This document shows positions 17,777 through 25,245 of a stretch of DNA of 36,282 nt, piece after piece (position 1 is the first letter of the stretch; every line of letters starts with the position of its first letter). Under the pieces are notes generated by a model. It was not told where the DNA came from. It worked only from the letters and a program-made list of their open reading frames with translations, and searched no databases. The position numbers and the translations under genes are program-made. Origin of the DNA: Fibrobacter intestinalis (GTDB lineage Bacteria > Fibrobacterota > Fibrobacteria > Fibrobacterales > Fibrobacteraceae); assembly GCF_900167415.1 (NCBI RefSeq), contig NZ_FUWU01000032.1, positions 1 through 36,282 of the forward strand, read 5' to 3'.

Positions 17777-17809
17777 GTGAAAATATGGAGCCTTGCGGAA
17801 TATTTTCAC
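17777..17809 (+). repeat. perfect 10-bp inverted repeat beside the IS left end
   Basis: GTGAAAATAT (17777-17786) and ATATTTTCAC (17800-17809) are exact reverse complements around a 13-base loop. It lies between the terminator and the IS200 left hairpin. It may be a subterminal IS structure or a second barrier to read-through. Confidence 0.6.
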
Positions 17810-17812
17810 AAG

Positions 17813-17834
17813 AAACCACCCGTTTTACGGGTGG
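17813..17834 (+). repeat. IS200 left-end hairpin
   Basis: 7-bp stem CCACCCG/CGGGTGG with loop TTTTA, identical to the right-end hairpin. Confidence 0.75.
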
Positions 17835-17905
17835 AGACAAAAGCTTTTAGCAAAAACTATTCCCGCAAATGTTACAATGTGATTGTTCAAGTCAATTGCC
17901 AACAT

Positions 17906-18369
17906 TTGGAGAATAGTATAAAGGCCAATATACGAGACTCGCTGAGTCATACGAAGTGGTTGTGTAAATACCACATAGTTTTCACGCCGAAATATAGAAG
18001 AAAAGCGATATATGGTCAATACAAGGAAAGTATTGGTAAAATATTGCGACAACTCTGCAATTACAAAGGAGTGGAAATCATCGAGGGGCACCTGATGGTG
18101 GATCATATCCATATGCTGGTGAGCATCCCGCCGAAATACAGCGTCTCAAATTGAAAGGCAAGAGCAGCCTGATGATATTTGATAAGCATGCAAATTTGAA
18201 ATACAAGTTTGGCAACCGCCATTTCTGGGCGGAAGGCTACTATGTCAGTACGGTCGGCTTGAACGAGGCTACCATAAAAAAGTATATCGCAGAGCAAGAG
18301 GCCCATGACATTGCAATGGATAAACTGACAACAAAGGAATACGAAGACCCTTTTAAGGGTGGCAAGTAA
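17906..18369 (+). pseudogene. tnpA: IS200/IS605 family TnpA (Y1 HUH transposase), frame broken by an internal deletion
   Basis: The first part (to 18154) reads SLSHTKWLCKYHIVFTPKYRRK ... KGVEIIEGHLM-DHIHMLVSIPPKYSVS, where HIH is the HUH metal motif. The second part, in another frame from about 18150, reads LKGKSSLMIFDKHANLKYKFGNRHFW, then GYYVSTVG and KKYIAEQ, whose Tyr matches the single-strand-cleaving nucleophile. Family members have five residues (Q-F-M-G-Y type) between SVS and LKGKSS; here only two bases remain, so about 13 bases are lost and the frame shifts. The first start in this frame is a TTG at 17906. The transposase is therefore inactive as written. Confidence 0.88.
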
Positions 18370-18481
18370 TACAAGCGCACATTTATGTGCGGCAACGTGT
18401 CAAACAGCGATAGACTTGAACGAACGTTCAAGCAGGGACTTAAGTCTCCGCTTGGGAACCTTGGCCTTATAGGCTTAGAGC

Positions 18482-18503
18482 AAACCACCCGTTTTACGGG
18501 TGG
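18482..18503 (+). repeat. IS200 right-end hairpin
   Basis: Same 22 bp as the left end; with flanking AA/TT the stem extends to 9 bp (18483-18505). Just upstream, CTTGAAC-GAAC-GTTCAAG near 18416 forms another small hairpin. Confidence 0.75.
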
Positions 18504-18505
18504 TT

Positions 18506-18844
18506 CTGATTGGGGAAATTTTTTAGGACGAACATCTGGCGAACCAAAGAATCTTTCAAGAAAAGAGTGGTTCCCGAGCGTCATGGCGAAAAGTCAAACT
18601 CGACTCGTCATAGCGATCTCTAAACGCCGTTTGCCATCGCAAAAAGCGGAAGCCAAAGTTATCAATGCGGCATGCGAATGTAGGAGCAGTCTTTGTGTGC
18701 GGCAAGGATGAGAAAAATAAGCGTAAAGTTGCTTTTCTCGGCAATGCCATGTGTGGTTTTTGAGAATTTTTGCAAAATGTGGTGTGTGCTTTTCGCACAA
18801 AACAAGCTGAGTTTATTATTATTGACGTAGTTTTTGGGCATGCT
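18506..18844 (+). other. stretch without a recognisable gene
   Basis: Between the IS right end and the next gene no reading frame resembles a protein. A frame open from 18770 into the downstream gene lacks a signal peptide at its start and is treated as an upstream extension. TTGACG occurs at 18822-18827 but has no good -10 at the usual spacing. The IS may have landed in the upstream region of the following locus. Confidence 0.4.
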
Positions 18845-19339
18845 GTGCTAAAATGGATGCTTTTATTCTTGCTTCTTTCCTGTTCATTTGGCTTTTCCCA
18901 AGAAAATGATCATTTAGGAAAAAACAATGTGGATAGTTTAGCAATTTATTACGATCTGATTGCCGAAGAAAATTATGACTCTCATTATGGACCCAATGTA
19001 GCAGGCATGGTTGTCGGGGGGATTTTGGTGGGAAGCGGAACATTTTTTTTGTGTGTGGCCATTAATGACGTTTCAAAAAATGATTTTGCATCGGCAGTTT
19101 CTGTAGGCTTCTTTTCTGCAATTTCTATTCCATTTTATCTAGTTGGTCTTCCTGTTTTTTTATACAACACGTATAAATTTGTCGTGCGCAAAGGCCATGC
19201 GAACCGGCGTGACGAATATATCGACGCCCTCAAGCGTTACAAGGAACGGCAGAGTGAAAGTTCCGTGGAATGGATGCTCGTGCCGTCTGTGGATTTGGCA
19301 AATGCGGGCGGTGGGCTGAATTTGCTCGTGTCGTTTTGA
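18845..19339 (+). CDS. small membrane protein, paralog 1 of 3
   Basis: The protein is 164 residues from the GTG at 18845; an ATG at 18857 is also possible, and neither has a clear ribosome-binding site. The start was chosen so that the signal peptide (MLLFLLLSCSFGFSQE) is N-terminal, as in the paralogs at 24141 and 24694. All three share an ...EENxxxxYxPNVxG motif, then two hydrophobic segments (here GMVVGGILVGSGTFFLCVAI and ISIPFYLVGLPVFLYNTYKF) and the basic, highly conserved tail RKGHANRRDEYIDALKRYKE ... VDLANAGGGLNLLVSF. The terminal G-G-G-L-N-L-L-V-x-F is like an outer-membrane strand ending in Phe. Function is unknown. It precedes the PLAT/TIG giant gene. Confidence 0.65.
   Translation: MLKWMLLFLLLSCSFGFSQENDHLGKNNVDSLAIYYDLIAEENYDSHYGPNVAGMVVGGILVGSGTFFLCVAINDVSKNDFASAVSVGFFSAISIPFYLVGLPVFLYNTYKFVVRKGHANRRDEYIDALKRYKERQSESSVEWMLVPSVDLANAGGGLNLLVSF
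19187..19339 (+). repeat. 153-bp 3' cassette, copy 1
   Basis: Starts CGCAAAGGCCATGCG and ends at the TGA stop. It is nearly identical to 24534-24686 and 25093-25245, whereas the 5' parts of the three genes differ much more. Confidence 0.85.
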
Positions 19340-19392
19340 AAAAGAAATTGTAAAATAATTGAAGATGTTTTTTTAGGGATAAGTAAAATTTG

Positions 19393-19421
19393 TTGACGAA
19401 AAAAACTGGTTTTATTATATT
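19393..19421 (+). promoter_or_regulatory. candidate sigma70-type promoter TTGACG-17-TATATT
   Basis: TTGACG (19393-19398) and TATATT (19416-19421) are spaced by 17 bases. The transcription start would fall at about 19428, which coincides with the ATG at 19429, so the mRNA would be nearly leaderless. It argues against a start at the TTG at 19390. Confidence 0.45.
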
Positions 19422-19428
19422 ATATTTT

Positions 19429-22400
19429 ATGTTTTTAATAAAAAATATTGTTTTAATCTTGTGCTTAGTTTCGTTGTCTTTGGCTGAATTTTCGCCCAAT
19501 TCGGATGCGGGAATGGTTTCAGTCTCTATGGATGGGGAAAGCCTGCAAAATTTGCTTTCGGTTTATGAAAATGCTGGCTATCATGATTTCGGTACAACGG
19601 ACATGTTGAAAAATGTTAAGGAAATTAAACGTGTGAATAAGTATTATTTTTACAATTTTAAAATGGATTTGAACGATAATGATCTAGGGTTTAGTATGGA
19701 TGGGACTTTGGATGCAAATGCTAGGAAAAAAAATTTTGGCGTACCTTGGCATCCTCATGTTAAAACAAGCGGAATAGATGCTTCTGCTAATGTATTTTTT
19801 AAAGATTTTGGAATTTCTGAGGACGGAAAGGTCCATTTGAACGTATGCTTTTCCGACGTTAATGTTGATATATCCGACATCTCTTATGGCTATGGTGCTA
19901 TATTTGATCATTTTGTTGTGGATGGTATTTTTGACGCAGATGAAATAATTAACTCTCAGGTGCAGGCAGAGTTGGATGCAGTTAAGGCAAATTTCAGTGA
20001 TGCTTTTAGCTGCATCGATATCACAAATCATGTGACCGTCAGTTATCCGGAGTTTCTTTCTCCTGTAGGCATTCAACATGCTGGTACGAAAGTGGCGGAT
20101 AATAAAATTTCCGCCTATGGTTGCCCCGTCGCTAAAATCAAGGTTGGCGATGCCGTTGTTATCGGTGACGGCTCGTGCGAAACGGTCGCTTATAATATTG
20201 CTGTATATACGGCAGATGACGTGGGGAATGCGGGGACGGAATCTAAAATAAGCGTTTCCTTGTGTGGAGACGACGCTTTCGGTGGCAGACGGTGCATTGA
20301 CGGTGTATTAAACGACTGGACTAAAAAAGGTCAAATATCGCATTTGCTTTTGGAAAGTTCCGCACTCTTGGTGGATAATTTGTCATTGTCCTTGACCAGC
20401 GATAATTCGGGGAGCAAACCCGGCTGGTATGTGGATTCTGTTTCTGTGGATATGACGATACCCAATAATAGCACATTCCATTATTGGTTTCCAATACACC
20501 GTTGGATAGGCGGCTCCAATAGGCCTACGTCTTTTACATTTCATCAAGCGGACAATCCTCAAGTTTATTCATTCACTGTAACGACAGGGAGCGGTTCCCG
20601 GTTTGAAACGGCAGGGACCGATTCGCATATTTTAGCGGATGCCTGCGATGTAAACGGCAAATGCCTGACATTTTTGTTGGACAAAGACGATCACGACGAT
20701 TTTGAAAAAGGCAGCACCTCCACATACTCAATTGTCACGAACGAAAAATTGGCGAATTTGAAAAGCCTGACGTTGCATAATGTTTATGACGAAAGTAGGC
20801 CTGGCTGGTACGTGCAGGATGTCATGTACAGCCACTATTCCTTTCCTGAAAGTAAAGACCATTCCTTAAAGGACGGCCAGGGGTTTATGTTCCGGCAATG
20901 GCTTGCCGAGGGGGAAAATCAAGGAGCTTATTATACAACGGACCGTTGGAATTATCCAGTCCAAACCTCCGATGAATTTTACCTTTATCCGGTAAATGCC
21001 GATCCGATTTTTTTCATTCGCGATATTTCCGCAACGCGTTATGTGAATGATAATTTTGGCTATAATGTAAGAATAAAGACCAAAAGCGGCGGTGCGTCGG
21101 GAACGGATGCCGATATTGCATTGACGCTGGAGGGCTGTTCCGGAGTAGTAGAAACTTTTGATTTGAATGACGATAAAGACAATTTTGAAAAGGGCGATGA
21201 AGATGTTTTTCTGCTTTCGGGCATTAAAGATTTAAAAGGGATAAAGAAAGTCTCTTTGCATAATGACGGTTCGGGCGATGGTGCCGGATGGTCTCCGGAG
21301 TCCTTGTCGGTAATTCCTGTTGTTTACGGTGGCATTTATGCGCTTCCGTACAATGCGGAATATCGGCATGAATTTACTCGAGGCTTGAATAAGAATGACG
21401 GTTGGGATTGGGAATCGGAAGAGTTGTCATGCCCGGATATGGCTCCTCAATTTATTCCATATGTTTATGAAGTTCATCCTGGTGAGTATTTGAATATTTT
21501 GGGAAAAAATTTGAAAGAGGCGCAAAACATTTCACTTGTTTTGAATAAAACGATAAATCCTGTTTCTGTGGATAGCCGGAACGCTACTTTTTACATTCCG
21601 GAAGACACTCCGCTTGGCGAATATAATTTGGGTTCTGTTTTGATTGACGGACTTTCCCAACAGGTCTTTGTTCATGTTCGAGGTGAAAAACCTGTTCTGG
21701 ACGGCATCGCCGTCTTTCAGGCCAAACCGGGCGACGGCTTTGAAGTATCAATGCGTAATGTAGATTCTTCTTCTCGCTTTTATTTGGGAAATCGCCCGCT
21801 GCAATTTTTGGCGATGTCAAAAAAAGGCGTCTATTTGCAAATCCCGAATGACATGGAAAACGGTATCTACAAATTTAGAACGCAATCCAACGGTTGGGAT
21901 ATTACGTTCGATGCTTCTATTGAAATTGTCGAATCCTCTGTTCCGCATATTTCAGGCATTTCGGGTACCATTGTTTACTCCGGTCAAATCATTGAAATTT
22001 TCGGGAAAAATTTTGGAGATTCAATTAATGCTATAGAAGTGAAATTTGGTGAAAAAACGGGTGGAATCCGGGCTGTTGAAAACGAAAGGATTCAAGTACG
22101 AATTCCTTATGGCGTGTCGGGCGATAGCATTTTGGTAAGGGTATCTCGTGAGGGGATTTGGGCGGGAGAAATCATCAAAATAAAAATTCAGAGCTTGCCC
22201 TGGTTTATGACTTTTGACGATGAACAAAATCTTTGGACTGGCGAAAATGCGAATCTTTCTTTGGATAAAGATATAAAATATGGCGATGTAGGCTACTCCT
22301 TAAAAATACATGGAGCGGGCTATATGCCGATTATTTCGCCTGTATTTAATACATACGAGTTGGGAGCGTTCTCCGACACTCTCCTTCTGGATATCTGGAT

Positions 22401-23205
22401 CCCGGAAAATCAAGCGAACCCCTATTGGTGGGGAGATGTTCAAATGAGCGTGAACATCCCTGCTGCGGGACTTTATAATGCCTGGATTGGGCAAAAGCCA
22501 TTGACAGGCCTGCATTCCGGGTGGAATACGCTTACTTTTGCATTGAATCCGACGATATACTCTGCCTTTGCCGGCGATTATCCAAATGCGACGATTTCTG
22601 TTATATTAAACGCTAATCAAAATGCGGAAGATTTCCGCATAGACAATTTGCGATTTGGCGGTGATATCAAAATTCGTAGGACGGAACATATCGAGGCCAG
22701 TCCCGTATTGAATGTGTATGCCGTGGATTTCATGTCTTTCGATAATATCAACGACTGGTCGTCTAGCGGCACGGAACTTCTTTTTGTGGATTCTCCCAAA
22801 ATGCAAGGTCTAGGCGCAACAGGCATCATGGCGTCCGGTTATACGGAAATAGAAAGCCGCCGTTTTTTACTTTCTGAATTGCAATATGTTTCCGATGTCA
22901 TTTCTCTGGATGTCTATGTGCCGAATCCTCAGCCGAACGATTATTGGGTGGGGAATTTAGGTCTGGGGCTTCGTTGTCCTGATTCCGGAATTTCTATGTA
23001 TCTGGGAAATGTGGATTTGACGCATTTGTTTCGCGAGGAATTCAACAATGTGCGGTTCACGTTGCCGCCGGATGCGCTACAGGCGTTGAAATCCGACGCT
23101 GGGGGATGTAGTTTTTCCGTGTATCTGAATGTGAATAACGGTGCGGGACTTTTCCTGTTGGATAATATGGGCTTTGTCAAAAAAATTGAAGTGGCGGGCA
23201 GGTAG
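19429..23205 (+). CDS. giant exported multidomain protein: three PLAT/LH2, three TIG-like and two jelly-roll domains
   Basis: The protein is 1258 residues. The ATG at 19429 opens a signal peptide (MFLIKNIVLILCLVSLSLAEF). Residues about 20-235: beta-rich region of TULIP/BPI-like appearance, ending IINSQVQAELDAVKANF. Residues 253-345, 379-468 and 544-630: three PLAT/LH2 domains, each with an A-G-T-[DE] strand, a D-x-F-E-K-G-type turn (clear in the last two), and P-G-W-Y/A-G-W before the last strand, then a PLAT-type F-x-x-x-W-L tail. Residues about 673-750, 754-834 and 839-920: TIG/IPT-like Ig folds (LNILGKNL, IEIFGKNFGD). Residues 924-1078 and 1099-1255: two homologous jelly-roll domains sharing M-[ST]-F-D-x-x-x-x-W, P-x-x-x-x-x-x-YW and a terminal D-N-[LM]-x-F. 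PLAT domains bind lipids or protein partners; jelly rolls often bind sugars. No catalytic domain is seen. The next gene starts three bases downstream. Confidence 0.75.
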   Translation: MFLIKNIVLILCLVSLSLAEFSPNSDAGMVSVSMDGESLQNLLSVYENAGYHDFGTTDMLKNVKEIKRVNKYYFYNFKMDLNDNDLGFSMDGTLDANARKKNFGVPWHPHVKTSGIDASANVFFKDFGISEDGKVHLNVCFSDVNVDISDISYGYGAIFDHFVVDGIFDADEIINSQVQAELDAVKANFSDAFSCIDITNHVTVSYPEFLSPVGIQHAGTKVADNKISAYGCPVAKIKVGDAVVIGDGSCETVAYNIAVYTADDVGNAGTESKISVSLCGDDAFGGRRCIDGVLNDWTKKGQISHLLLESSALLVDNLSLSLTSDNSGSKPGWYVDSVSVDMTIPNNSTFHYWFPIHRWIGGSNRPTSFTFHQADNPQVYSFTVTTGSGSRFETAGTDSHILADACDVNGKCLTFLLDKDDHDDFEKGSTSTYSIVTNEKLANLKSLTLHNVYDESRPGWYVQDVMYSHYSFPESKDHSLKDGQGFMFRQWLAEGENQGAYYTTDRWNYPVQTSDEFYLYPVNADPIFFIRDISATRYVNDNFGYNVRIKTKSGGASGTDADIALTLEGCSGVVETFDLNDDKDNFEKGDEDVFLLSGIKDLKGIKKVSLHNDGSGDGAGWSPESLSVIPVVYGGIYALPYNAEYRHEFTRGLNKNDGWDWESEELSCPDMAPQFIPYVYEVHPGEYLNILGKNLKEAQNISLVLNKTINPVSVDSRNATFYIPEDTPLGEYNLGSVLIDGLSQQVFVHVRGEKPVLDGIAVFQAKPGDGFEVSMRNVDSSSRFYLGNRPLQFLAMSKKGVYLQIPNDMENGIYKFRTQSNGWDITFDASIEIVESSVPHISGISGTIVYSGQIIEIFGKNFGDSINAIEVKFGEKTGGIRAVENERIQVRIPYGVSGDSILVRVSREGIWAGEIIKIKIQSLPWFMTFDDEQNLWTGENANLSLDKDIKYGDVGYSLKIHGAGYMPIISPVFNTYELGAFSDTLLLDIWIPENQANPYWWGDVQMSVNIPAAGLYNAWIGQKPLTGLHSGWNTLTFALNPTIYSAFAGDYPNATISVILNANQNAEDFRIDNLRFGGDIKIRRTEHIEASPVLNVYAVDFMSFDNINDWSSSGTELLFVDSPKMQGLGATGIMASGYTEIESRRFLLSELQYVSDVISLDVYVPNPQPNDYWVGNLGLGLRCPDSGISMYLGNVDLTHLFREEFNNVRFTLPPDALQALKSDAGGCSFSVYLNVNNGAGLFLLDNMGFVKKIEVAGR

Positions 23206-23208
23206 AAC

Positions 23209-24144
23209 GTGAAACGGATTTTGTGCATACTCTTGATTTGTTCCCATTTTCTTTTCGGGGCGGATTATTTCAAACCGGAAAGGATTTCTCTTCCGATCAA
23301 AATGCAAACTTTGGTCGGAGAAACGGCGATAAACAACGTACTGATGTCCTATTTTTCGGGAACGCATGAAATTGACGTGGATAATATTGGAACCATCGTT
23401 TTGACTGTAAATAATATAGGAATTGACATTCGTGGAAAAGACGATGTGTTTTTGGGCTATGATTTGATACTCGCTCCGAATTTTCTGTCGGAATTGTCAG
23501 ATATCGCTGGTGGCGCGATTCGTGGTGAAATACCGATTCAGGGAGCTGTTTCGCTGCGGGAGCTGCAAGATGCCTACGTCATCGTAATGAATTTAGGCGA
23601 AGTTGTTGATAAAATTTTGGAACACTATCACGTAACAAATGTTTCGATTGTTTCGTCATTAAAGAATTTCTTTTCGCAAACAAATGGGGCGGTAGAACTG
23701 TGGAAACAAAAATACAGCACACTTTTGGATGCCGATGTGAACAAATTGGAAAAGCCTCTGGACTTGGTAATAGCTGAAAAGGAACTTACGTTGTCCATTG
23801 GAGAGGTTGAGGACAATATCTCCCTTGATTTGAAGTTGCTGCTGGAATCGGAGAAACAGTATTTTTGGATTGAAAAAAATGATGTGGATAAATTGGATGT
23901 GACTATTAATTCTAATAAAAATTTTCAGGGATTGACATTGTTTTTAATCTATAACGATTACTCCCCAACTAATTTTACTGGTTTCATTGAATGTCCCAGA
24001 CTCTCCGAAAAAAGTATCCGAACGGTAAATTTAAAAGATGTCTGCGATGATTTCTCGAATATCTCTGCAAAAACCATCAAGATGTTTTTTAAATTAAAAA
24101 GCAAACACGGAGGAATTCTTCAACTGGAGAAAACTTTGAAATGA
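23209..24144 (+). CDS. exported protein of unknown function, partner of the PLAT/TIG protein
   Basis: The protein is 311 residues from a GTG at 23209, three bases after the preceding stop, with AGG at 23200-23202. The signal peptide is MKRILCILLICSHFLFGADY. The mature part has long amphipathic strands (IGTIVLTVNNIGIDIRGKD, LSLDLKLLLES-type) and a helical middle (RELQDAYVIVMNLGEVVDKI ... NVSIVSSLKNFFSQ). No family is recognised. The opening (VGETAINNVLMSYF ... HEIDVDNIG) is weakly like the N-terminal region of the giant protein (GESLQNLLSVYENAG), so both may carry a related lipid-binding-like fold, but this is an impression only. The stop overlaps the next start (ATGA). Confidence 0.65.
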   Translation: MKRILCILLICSHFLFGADYFKPERISLPIKMQTLVGETAINNVLMSYFSGTHEIDVDNIGTIVLTVNNIGIDIRGKDDVFLGYDLILAPNFLSELSDIAGGAIRGEIPIQGAVSLRELQDAYVIVMNLGEVVDKILEHYHVTNVSIVSSLKNFFSQTNGAVELWKQKYSTLLDADVNKLEKPLDLVIAEKELTLSIGEVEDNISLDLKLLLESEKQYFWIEKNDVDKLDVTINSNKNFQGLTLFLIYNDYSPTNFTGFIECPRLSEKSIRTVNLKDVCDDFSNISAKTIKMFFKLKSKHGGILQLEKTLK

Positions 24145-24686
24145 TGCGATATCAATGTTTCTTATTGTTTCTGTTGCTGAATTTACTTTTGGGGCATGCT
24201 AGTGCGGCGGAAAATAAGATTTTCTTGGCGGAAAGTCCGTTGGAACAAAATGCGGAAACTGCCATTGAATGGAATGGCGACAGCGTTCAAATTTACAACA
24301 ATTTAATTGCCGAAGAAAATGATGATTCCCATTATGGTCCAAACGTAGCAGGCATGGTTATCGGTGGGCTTTTGGTGGGAGGCGGAACATTTTTTAGTGT
24401 GGTCGCAGTAAATGCCGCTTCAGATGCCGATTGGCTGTCGGCGGTAGGTGCCGGCTTATTTACGGCAGCTTCCGTTCCTTTTTATCTGGTCGGCCTTCCC
24501 GTTTTCCTATACAATACATATAAATTTGCTGTTCGCAAAGGCCATGCGAATCGGCGAGACGAATACATCGATGCCCTCAAGCGTTACAAGGAACGGCAGC
24601 GCGAAAGTTCCGTGGAATGGATGCTTGTGCCGTCGGTGGATTTGGCGAATGCGGGCGGTGGGCTGAATTTGCTCGTGGCGTTTTGA
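24141..24686 (+). CDS. small membrane protein, paralog 2 of 3
   Basis: The protein is 181 residues; ATG overlaps the previous TGA by four bases, so translation is coupled. Signal peptide MMRYQCFLLFLLLNLLLGHASAAE. NLIAEENDDSHYGPNVAGMV and two hydrophobic segments (VIGGLLVGGGTFFSVVAVNA; SVPFYLVGLPVFLYNTYKF) match paralog 1 nearly residue for residue, and the last 50 residues are almost identical. The first 50 residues of the mature part differ between copies. The role is unknown; the co-transcription with the PLAT/TIG gene suggests an envelope assembly or anchoring function. Confidence 0.7.
   Translation: MMRYQCFLLFLLLNLLLGHASAAENKIFLAESPLEQNAETAIEWNGDSVQIYNNLIAEENDDSHYGPNVAGMVIGGLLVGGGTFFSVVAVNAASDADWLSAVGAGLFTAASVPFYLVGLPVFLYNTYKFAVRKGHANRRDEYIDALKRYKERQRESSVEWMLVPSVDLANAGGGLNLLVAF
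24534..24686 (+). repeat. 153-bp 3' cassette, copy 2
   Basis: Same 153-bp 3' end as 19187-19339 and 25093-25245, differing by scattered single bases. Confidence 0.85.
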
Positions 24687-24693
24687 GGAATGA

Positions 24694-25245
24694 ATGATGC
24701 GGAATAAAGTGCTATTCTTTTTGCTGCTGAATTTGCTTTGGGGAACCGCTTATGCGGAGGATATCTCTTTGGCGAATGGGGAGCTTCCATTGACGTCGAA
24801 TAGAAAATTTTCGGCTGTCGTAAAAGATGACAGTTTGGCTATTTACCATGCTTTAATTACCGAAGAAAATTTGAATGCCGATTACCGTCCAAATGTGACC
24901 GGCATTGTTTTCGGAAGCGTTTATGTTGGGCTTGGGACTGGATTTTTGGGGGGAGGAATCGGCGTACTTAATGCCTCTTTCGCCAACAAGAGCGTTCATC
25001 GTGTTCTTGGAACGACATTTATCGTCGTCGCCATTCCGTTTTATCTGGTCGGCCTTCCTATCCTGATTTCTAACATCTATGAGTATAGCGTACGCAAAGG
25101 CCATGCGAACCGCCGTGACGAATACATCGACGCCCTCAAGCGTTACAAGGAACGGCAGCGCGAAAGTTCTGTGGAATGGATACTTATGCCGTCGGTGGAT
25201 TTGGCGAATGCGGGCGGCGGGCTGAATTTGCTCGTGGCGTTTTGA
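24694..25245 (+). CDS. small membrane protein, paralog 3 of 3
   Basis: The protein is 183 residues; GAGGA (24685-24689) overlaps the previous stop. Either of two consecutive ATG codons (24694 or 24697) may be used. Signal peptide MRNKVLFFLLLNLLWGTAYAED. This is the most diverged copy in the middle: LITEENLNADYRPNVTGIVF, GLGTGFLGGGIGVLNASF and VVAIPFYLVGLPILISNIYEY, but the tail from RKGHANRR onward is the same as in the others. It ends the locus and faces hrpB, which is convergent 21 bases away. Confidence 0.7.
   Translation: MMRNKVLFFLLLNLLWGTAYAEDISLANGELPLTSNRKFSAVVKDDSLAIYHALITEENLNADYRPNVTGIVFGSVYVGLGTGFLGGGIGVLNASFANKSVHRVLGTTFIVVAIPFYLVGLPILISNIYEYSVRKGHANRRDEYIDALKRYKERQRESSVEWILMPSVDLANAGGGLNLLVAF
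25093..25245 (+). repeat. 153-bp 3' cassette, copy 3
   Basis: Third copy of the 3' cassette, directly 3' of copy 2 by one gene length. The identity contrasts with strong divergence just upstream of 25093. Confidence 0.85.

What the first reader, a model, noticed from the sequence alone, without database searches (positions are those of the whole stretch)
19429..23205. Exported giant with three PLAT, three TIG-like and two tandem jelly-roll domains
The domain order can be read directly: three repeats ending in P-G-W/A-G-W with PLAT-type F-x-x-x-W-L tails, three Ig/TIG folds and two clearly homologous C-terminal modules. PLAT domains (polycystin-1, lipoxygenase, alpha-toxin) are best known as lipid- or partner-binding units. 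Three in one bacterial exported protein joined to sugar-binding-like modules, without an enzyme, suggests a surface adhesin or scaffold bridging membrane lipid and carbohydrate. I do not know of a described system with this architecture.
Basis: partly seen in the sequence, partly recalled or inferred. Interest (0 to 1): 0.75.

Follow-up and report, generated by a model that had tools for sequence, protein, structure and literature searches.

The report
Exported lipid-and-sugar-binding bridge protein
A relative of the fibre-degrading gut bacterium Fibrobacter carries a large exported protein with no recognisable enzyme; it joins three lipid-binding-type (PLAT) domains to an arm resembling the sugar-capturing surface proteins of Bacteroides, a real and conserved but apparently undescribed combination whose function is still inferred.

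Summary
ORF 19429-23205 (1258 aa, signal peptide) has three PLAT domains (Pfam E 2.8e-24; PDB profile hits to lipoxygenases, alpha-toxin, polycystin-1), three TIG domains and two homologous C-terminal beta-sandwich modules (32% identity, E 2e-20). The order PLAT x3-TIG x3-C-C is a conserved family: the window gene and three close orthologues (two genera), plus two collinear 1903/1933-aa relatives in a third genus. The TIG-C half resembles Bacteroides SGBP-B (PDB profile top hit 5e7g, E 4.7e-6; 11 of the top 12 Foldseek hits), but lacks a lipobox, SusCD neighbours and a thresholded SGBP-B match: it works like SGBP-B without being a proven member. Elsewhere in the phylum the C modules end phospholipase C, esterase, C25/S8 protease and VWA proteins; I found no glycoside hydrolase, which weakens a purely plant-fibre reading. 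The gene lies in a low-GC accessory cassette with ORF2; a second copy in the genome is a deletion remnant, and the same-genus allele is a mosaic with switch points near domain borders. Best explanation: a non-enzymatic lipid-plus-glycan bridging surface protein, moderate confidence. New variant of a known kind; interest 0.45.

The parts
19429..19485 (+). signal peptide, residues 1-19; cleavage by signal peptidase I suggested by SLA|EF, no lipobox
   Evidence: sequence; only hydrophobic segment of the protein
19489..20175 (+). N-terminal domain, residues 21-249, fold unknown; most divergent part between alleles
   Evidence: conserved in four orthologues, found only in these genomes plus a remnant (two further hits are marginal, E 0.004); model pLDDT about 33, so unresolved
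20191..20535 (+). PLAT domain 1
   Evidence: Pfam PF01477 over cut-off; PDB profile
20566..20826 (+). PLAT domain 2
   Evidence: Pfam PF01477 over cut-off
21061..21351 (+). PLAT domain 3
   Evidence: Pfam PF01477 over cut-off; phmmer to coral 8R-LOX 1.6e-4
21445..21678 (+). TIG/Ig-like domain 1, residues 673-750
   Evidence: model, pLDDT blocks 71-89; alignment to 5e7g
21679..21936 (+). TIG/Ig-like domain 2, residues 751-836
   Evidence: model, pLDDT blocks 75-91; alignment to 5e7g
21943..22155 (+). TIG domain 3, residues 839-909
   Evidence: Pfam PF01833 E 7.5e-8, over cut-off
22198..22722 (+). C-terminal module 1 (C1), beta-sandwich, SGBP-B-like
   Evidence: homology to C2; family alignment; model and fold search
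22723..23202 (+). C-terminal module 2 (C2), homologous to C1
   Evidence: 32% identity, E 2e-20
23209..24144 (+). ORF2, 311-aa exported protein of unknown family, 3 bases after the giant's stop
   Evidence: follows the giant in all four loci with an orthologue, in two frames in G098; no Pfam or NCBIfam match
18770..19339 (+). small exported two-TM protein, upstream of the giant
   Evidence: family alignment A7; widespread family
24141..24686 (+). small exported two-TM protein, start overlaps the end of ORF2
24694..25245 (+). small exported protein of the same family
17777..18154 (+). truncated IS200-like transposase beside the cassette
   Evidence: Pfam PF01797 9.1e-21, matches profile positions 2-66 of 121

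Best explanation
The gene encodes an exported, probably surface-exposed bridging protein without a recognised enzyme. Its C-terminal half (three TIG domains as a stalk, two beta-sandwich modules at the tip) works like the Bacteroides SGBP-B surface glycan-binding proteins and binds a glycan. Its three PLAT domains bind a membrane lipid or a membrane partner, in place of the lipid anchor that SGBP-B has. The N-terminal domain carries the variable specificity. Shown: the architecture, its conservation across genera, the export signal, the SGBP-B resemblance and the turnover of the cassette. Inferred: surface location, lipid binding, glycan binding, the role of the N-domain and the bridging itself.
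For: PLAT x3 by Pfam, PDB profile and fold search. TIG1-3 plus C1 profile: PDB top hit is SGBP-B 5e7g, E 4.7e-6, aligned through all three TIGs. Foldseek of the C-half: 11 of the top 12 hits are SGBP-B from Bacteroides or Prevotella, best E 3.1e-10. A sister C module (L037) matches PF18329 SGBP_B_XBD end to end, E 0.0076, below its cut-off. Collinear order kept over more than 1000 aa at 30-31% identity in another genus. Signal peptide without lipobox, so another means of retention is needed. A described SGBP-B-like protein with two tandem CBM-like domains (CHU_1279) binds cellulose (PMC12016534).
Against: No binding data. Models are low confidence (mean pLDDT 48 and 58), and the fold search depends partly on Ig-like repeats, which also match plexins at weaker E. 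The window's own C modules match no Pfam CBM or SGBP_B family. C modules elsewhere sit on PLC, esterase, proteases and VWA heads; no glycoside hydrolase was found among the heads scanned. PLAT domains can be protein-protein modules. No SusC/SusD or CAZyme genes among the flanking genes annotated.
Confidence: 0.42

Rival explanations
1. Membrane-targeting scaffold of a secreted lipid- and protein-degrading set: the PLATs hold onto foreign or shed membranes, and the C modules are a shared attachment tail also used by secreted PLC, esterase and protease partners (a split counterpart of PLC-plus-PLAT proteins).
For: In genus g3 a zinc PLC-like protein and the PLAT giants carry the same C1-C2-tail (44-50% identity). 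Other C-module heads are PLC, PGAP1-like esterase, C25 and S8 proteases.
Against: The window's genome has C modules only in this protein, so no enzyme partner with the same tail was found there; ORF2 is not a recognisable enzyme.
Confidence: 0.17
2. Plant-glycan capture protein (SGBP-like) in which the PLAT domains act only as protein-protein or spacer domains.
For: SGBP-B resemblance of the C-half; close relatives are Fibrobacter succinogenes MAGs, a species known for fibre degradation; the g3 relative has an extra C-terminal tail with a weak CBM64 match (E 0.0067, below cut-off).
Against: No glycoside hydrolase found among C-module proteins; cassette absent from most genomes of the family; two of three PLATs keep the GTD, (D/N)FE and GW positions that the lipoxygenase PLATs show in the alignments.
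Confidence: 0.22
3. C modules are a secretion or sorting signal (T9SS-like C-terminal domain) and the protein's binding functions lie only in PLAT and TIG.
For: The module lies at or near the C-terminus of unrelated exported heads; the T9SS translocon SprA is present in the genome (1231.7 bits).
Against: 145 of 168 genomes in the phylum lack the module and the window's genome uses it in one protein only; no TIGR04183 or TIGR04131 match; about 155 aa with an SGBP-like fold.
Confidence: 0.1

Closest known systems
Bacteroides SGBP-B (BACOVA_02650, PDB 5e7g; PF18329)
   Same: three TIG/Ig-like stalk domains followed by a C-terminal beta-sandwich; best PDB sequence and fold match
   Different: the window protein has two tandem C modules, three PLATs and a unique N-domain; no lipobox, no SusCD neighbours; SGBP_B_XBD profile not matched by the window's modules
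CHU_1279 of Cytophaga hutchinsonii (PMC12016534)
   Same: two tandem CBM-like beta-sandwich domains, described as SGBP-B-like, in an exported protein of a cellulose degrader
   Different: no PLAT or TIG domains reported in the sections read; homology to the window protein not tested here
PLAT/LH2 domain proteins: lipoxygenases, clostridial alpha-toxin, polycystin-1 (PF01477)
   Same: three domains over the Pfam cut-off and matching solved PLATs
   Different: those carry an enzyme or channel; here the PLATs are in series, exported and joined to a glycan-binding-like arm
G002 1903- and 1933-aa proteins (L033, L095), genus g3 of the same family
   Same: collinear PLATs, TIGs and C1-C2 over more than 1000 aa, 30-31% identity
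   Different: extra PLAT-type repeat, different 600-aa N-terminus, extra C-terminal tail, no ORF2

Membership tests
PLAT/LH2 (PF01477) | profile match over curated cut-off | tested here: met
   86.5 bits vs 23, three stretches; each domain over cut-off in the genome search
PLAT/LH2 (PF01477) | PLAT/C2-like beta-sandwich fold | tested here: met
   Foldseek best hits are lipoxygenase PLATs at probability 1.00, although E is about 0.01 and model confidence is modest
PLAT/LH2 (PF01477) | lipid or membrane binding, calcium ligands | not testable with these tools
   needs assay or ligand-level structure; PLAT calcium dependence is variable (PMC7436259)
SGBP-B | TIG/Ig stalk followed by C-terminal beta-sandwich | tested here: met
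SGBP-B | PF18329 XBD match over cut-off | tested here: not met
   no hit in the window protein; sister module L037 16.8 bits vs cut-off 26.4
SGBP-B | lipoprotein signal peptide | tested here: not met
   SLA|EF signal, no lipobox (sequence); no signal-peptide predictor was run
SGBP-B | encoded in a PUL with SusC/SusD | tested here: not met
   flanking genes are epimerase, a serine-rich lipoprotein-like protein, IS200 fragment, ORF2, small proteins, hrpB, speA; window genes further away were not annotated
SGBP-B | glycan binding | not testable with these tools
   needs binding assay
T9SS cargo | TIGR04183/TIGR04131 C-terminal domain | tested here: not met
   NCBIfam scan; SprA present in genome
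alpha-toxin-like phospholipase C | Zn_dep_PLPC catalytic domain | tested here: not met
   no match in P0001; seen only in C-module proteins of G002 and G165

The most novel reading that the evidence does not exclude
A new class of enzyme-free surface system in which tandem PLAT domains replace a lipid anchor, docking an SGBP-B-like glycan arm onto membranes, with alleles reassorted domain by domain and, in some relatives, secreted phospholipases sharing the same C-terminal arm.
Probability: 0.15. Interest if true: 0.75.

Novelty: new variant of a known kind. Interest (0 to 1): 0.45.

Why it matters
How Fibrobacter-type bacteria hold onto fibre and membranes without cellulosomes or SusCD systems is poorly understood (general knowledge). 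A protein family that joins lipid-binding-type domains to a Bacteroides-like glycan arm gives a concrete, testable candidate, and the C module links it to secreted phospholipases and proteases across the phylum. The near domain-border mosaic suggests a surface protein under exchange.

Tried and rejected
N-domain and ORF2 as homologues: profile comparison 2% probability, HMM and blastp not significant, best pair E 0.066. A TULIP-like lipid-binding fold was considered for the N-domain from its pattern of long strands and helices, but the model is unresolved (pLDDT about 33), so it is not claimed. C module as plant CBM: no Pfam CBM, no PDB sequence hit for the module alone and no glycoside hydrolase heads found. 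C module as T9SS signal: made unlikely by its distribution. Small two-TM proteins as dedicated partners: rejected, found in 45 of 111 genomes mostly without the giant. No match to the giant in plasmids or phages; no Rfam RNA in the window. PHROG matches weak and uninformative. Promoter- and terminator-like matches near the operon are about as many as shuffles give. BoSGBP-B contact residues could not be checked because that paper is not held; the invariant module Trp (W936) aligns with a Trp of 5e7g, but its role as a sugar contact is from memory only.

Full report
Observation. The ORF at 19429-23205 (+) is real: 1258 aa, no internal stop, signal peptide and no other hydrophobic segment. Pfam gives PLAT x3 (86.5 bits, E 2.8e-24) and TIG. 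A profile of the PLATs (window, L031, L032, L033) finds solved PLATs of 11R-LOX (4.9e-15), 5-LOX, 8R-LOX, clostridial alpha-toxin and polycystin-1. AlphaFold of residues 20-660 is weak overall (mean pLDDT 48, three sequences only), but its 21 best Foldseek hits are all lipoxygenase PLATs with probability 1.00. The two C-terminal modules are homologous (32%, E 2e-20).

Residues 21-250 form a conserved domain of unknown fold, found only in the four orthologues and one remnant. ORF2 (23209-24144) starts 3 bases after the giant's stop and follows it in all four loci, lying in two frames in G098. The stretch 18-24 kb has 41-43% GC against about 45-53% in the rest of the window and lies beside a truncated IS200-like transposase, so it looks like an accessory cassette.

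It is a family. Full orthologues of the window protein: G098 (same genus, 87%), L031 (57%) and L032 (58%), the last two being Fibrobacter succinogenes MAGs; L032 lacks C2. In genus g3 two proteins of 1903 and 1933 aa align collinearly with residues 255-1255 at 30-31% and carry an extra PLAT-type repeat and an extra C-terminal tail. Only 11 of 168 genomes of the phylum have any PLAT.

The C-half is SGBP-B-like. A profile of TIG1-3 plus C1 has BACOVA_02650 (5e7g, xyloglucan SGBP-B) as its top PDB hit, E 4.7e-6, aligned through all three TIGs into the start of the glycan-binding domain. Foldseek of the C-half model (TIG1-2 pLDDT blocks 71-91; C modules lower, at best about 76) gives SGBP-Bs as 11 of the first 12 hits, best E 3.1e-10; global TM is low because inter-domain placement is unreliable. 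A sister module in L037 matches SGBP_B_XBD end to end at E 0.0076, below its cut-off. Tandem CBM-like, SGBP-B-like proteins that bind cellulose are described (CHU_1279; PMC12016534). But the window protein has no lipobox, no SusCD neighbours and no XBD match: it works like SGBP-B but is not filed as one.

A complication. The C module occurs in 23 of 168 genomes, at or near the C-terminus of proteins whose heads are zinc PLC (G002, G165), PGAP1/thioesterase-type esterase (G154), C25 proteases (G088, G130 x2), an S8 protease (G125), VWA proteins, beta-helix proteins and the PLAT giants. Not every C-module head was scanned. No glycoside hydrolase head was seen. It is not a general T9SS signal: most genomes lack it and the window's genome uses it in one protein, although SprA is present. 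The module is therefore best seen as a binding or attachment module whose ligand, plant or self glycan, is open.

Evolution. In the same genome a second locus (G000:C103, L002) keeps only about the first 105 residues of the giant followed by the last part of ORF2; its flanks are 96-97% identical to the intact G098 locus, so it is a deletion remnant. In G102 ORF2 is split by a transposase gene next to speA, the same gene that lies near the window cassette, and no giant is found. Window and G098 alleles form a mosaic: third-position difference 0.46 (res 2-235), 0.14 (236-533), 0.41 (534-834), 0.10 (835-1257), permutation p <= 2e-4. The switch points lie close to the starts of PLAT1, PLAT3 and TIG3. 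The permutation test used one statistic and one 60-codon window, and the segmentation threshold was my choice, so the exact break points are approximate. Recombination is the simplest reading; regional differences in constraint on synonymous sites were not modelled.

Mechanism. Most likely (0.42): an exported bridging protein, glycan at the C-terminal tip, membrane lipid or partner at the PLATs, variable N-domain. Surface location and both bindings are inferred. Rivals and refuting tests are listed in their sections.

Limits. Structure models rest on three sequences. The held library is open-licence papers only, so 'undescribed' means not found there.

Noticed in passing
18770-19339, 24141-24686, 24694-25245; L002, L031, L076, L077: Small exported two-TM proteins with near-identical C-termini within each genome but divergent N-terminal halves, suggesting gene conversion; family present in 45 of 111 genomes, often in tandem.
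   Followed up: partly
L002 (G000:C103): Deletion remnant of the giant plus ORF2 cassette in the same genome, at the locus that is intact for the giant in G098.
   Followed up: yes
L077 6892-9211 (G102), L076: ORF2 split by a transposase gene next to speA; elsewhere in G102 further ORF2 tail fragments and small-protein copies near two identical transposase genes.
   Followed up: partly
L094 164-4156 (G002); L114 252-4478 (G165): Zinc PLC-like proteins ending in two C modules plus a tail ending SWASWSWWP or SWASITFW; no family name for the tail passes threshold.
   Followed up: partly
L041 801-7451, L040 2113-9000; L038, L039: A different PLAT type: about 10 PLATs in ORFs of 2217-2498 aa (G055, G094), and pairs of PLATs at the N-terminus of about 550-aa proteins without evident signal peptide (G060, G018).
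   Followed up: no
L110-L119: C module at the C-terminus of C25, S8, VWA, esterase and beta-helix proteins across the phylum, with no curated Pfam family for it.
   Followed up: partly
18001-24000: GC falls to 41-43% across the cassette against about 45-53% elsewhere in the window.
   Followed up: no
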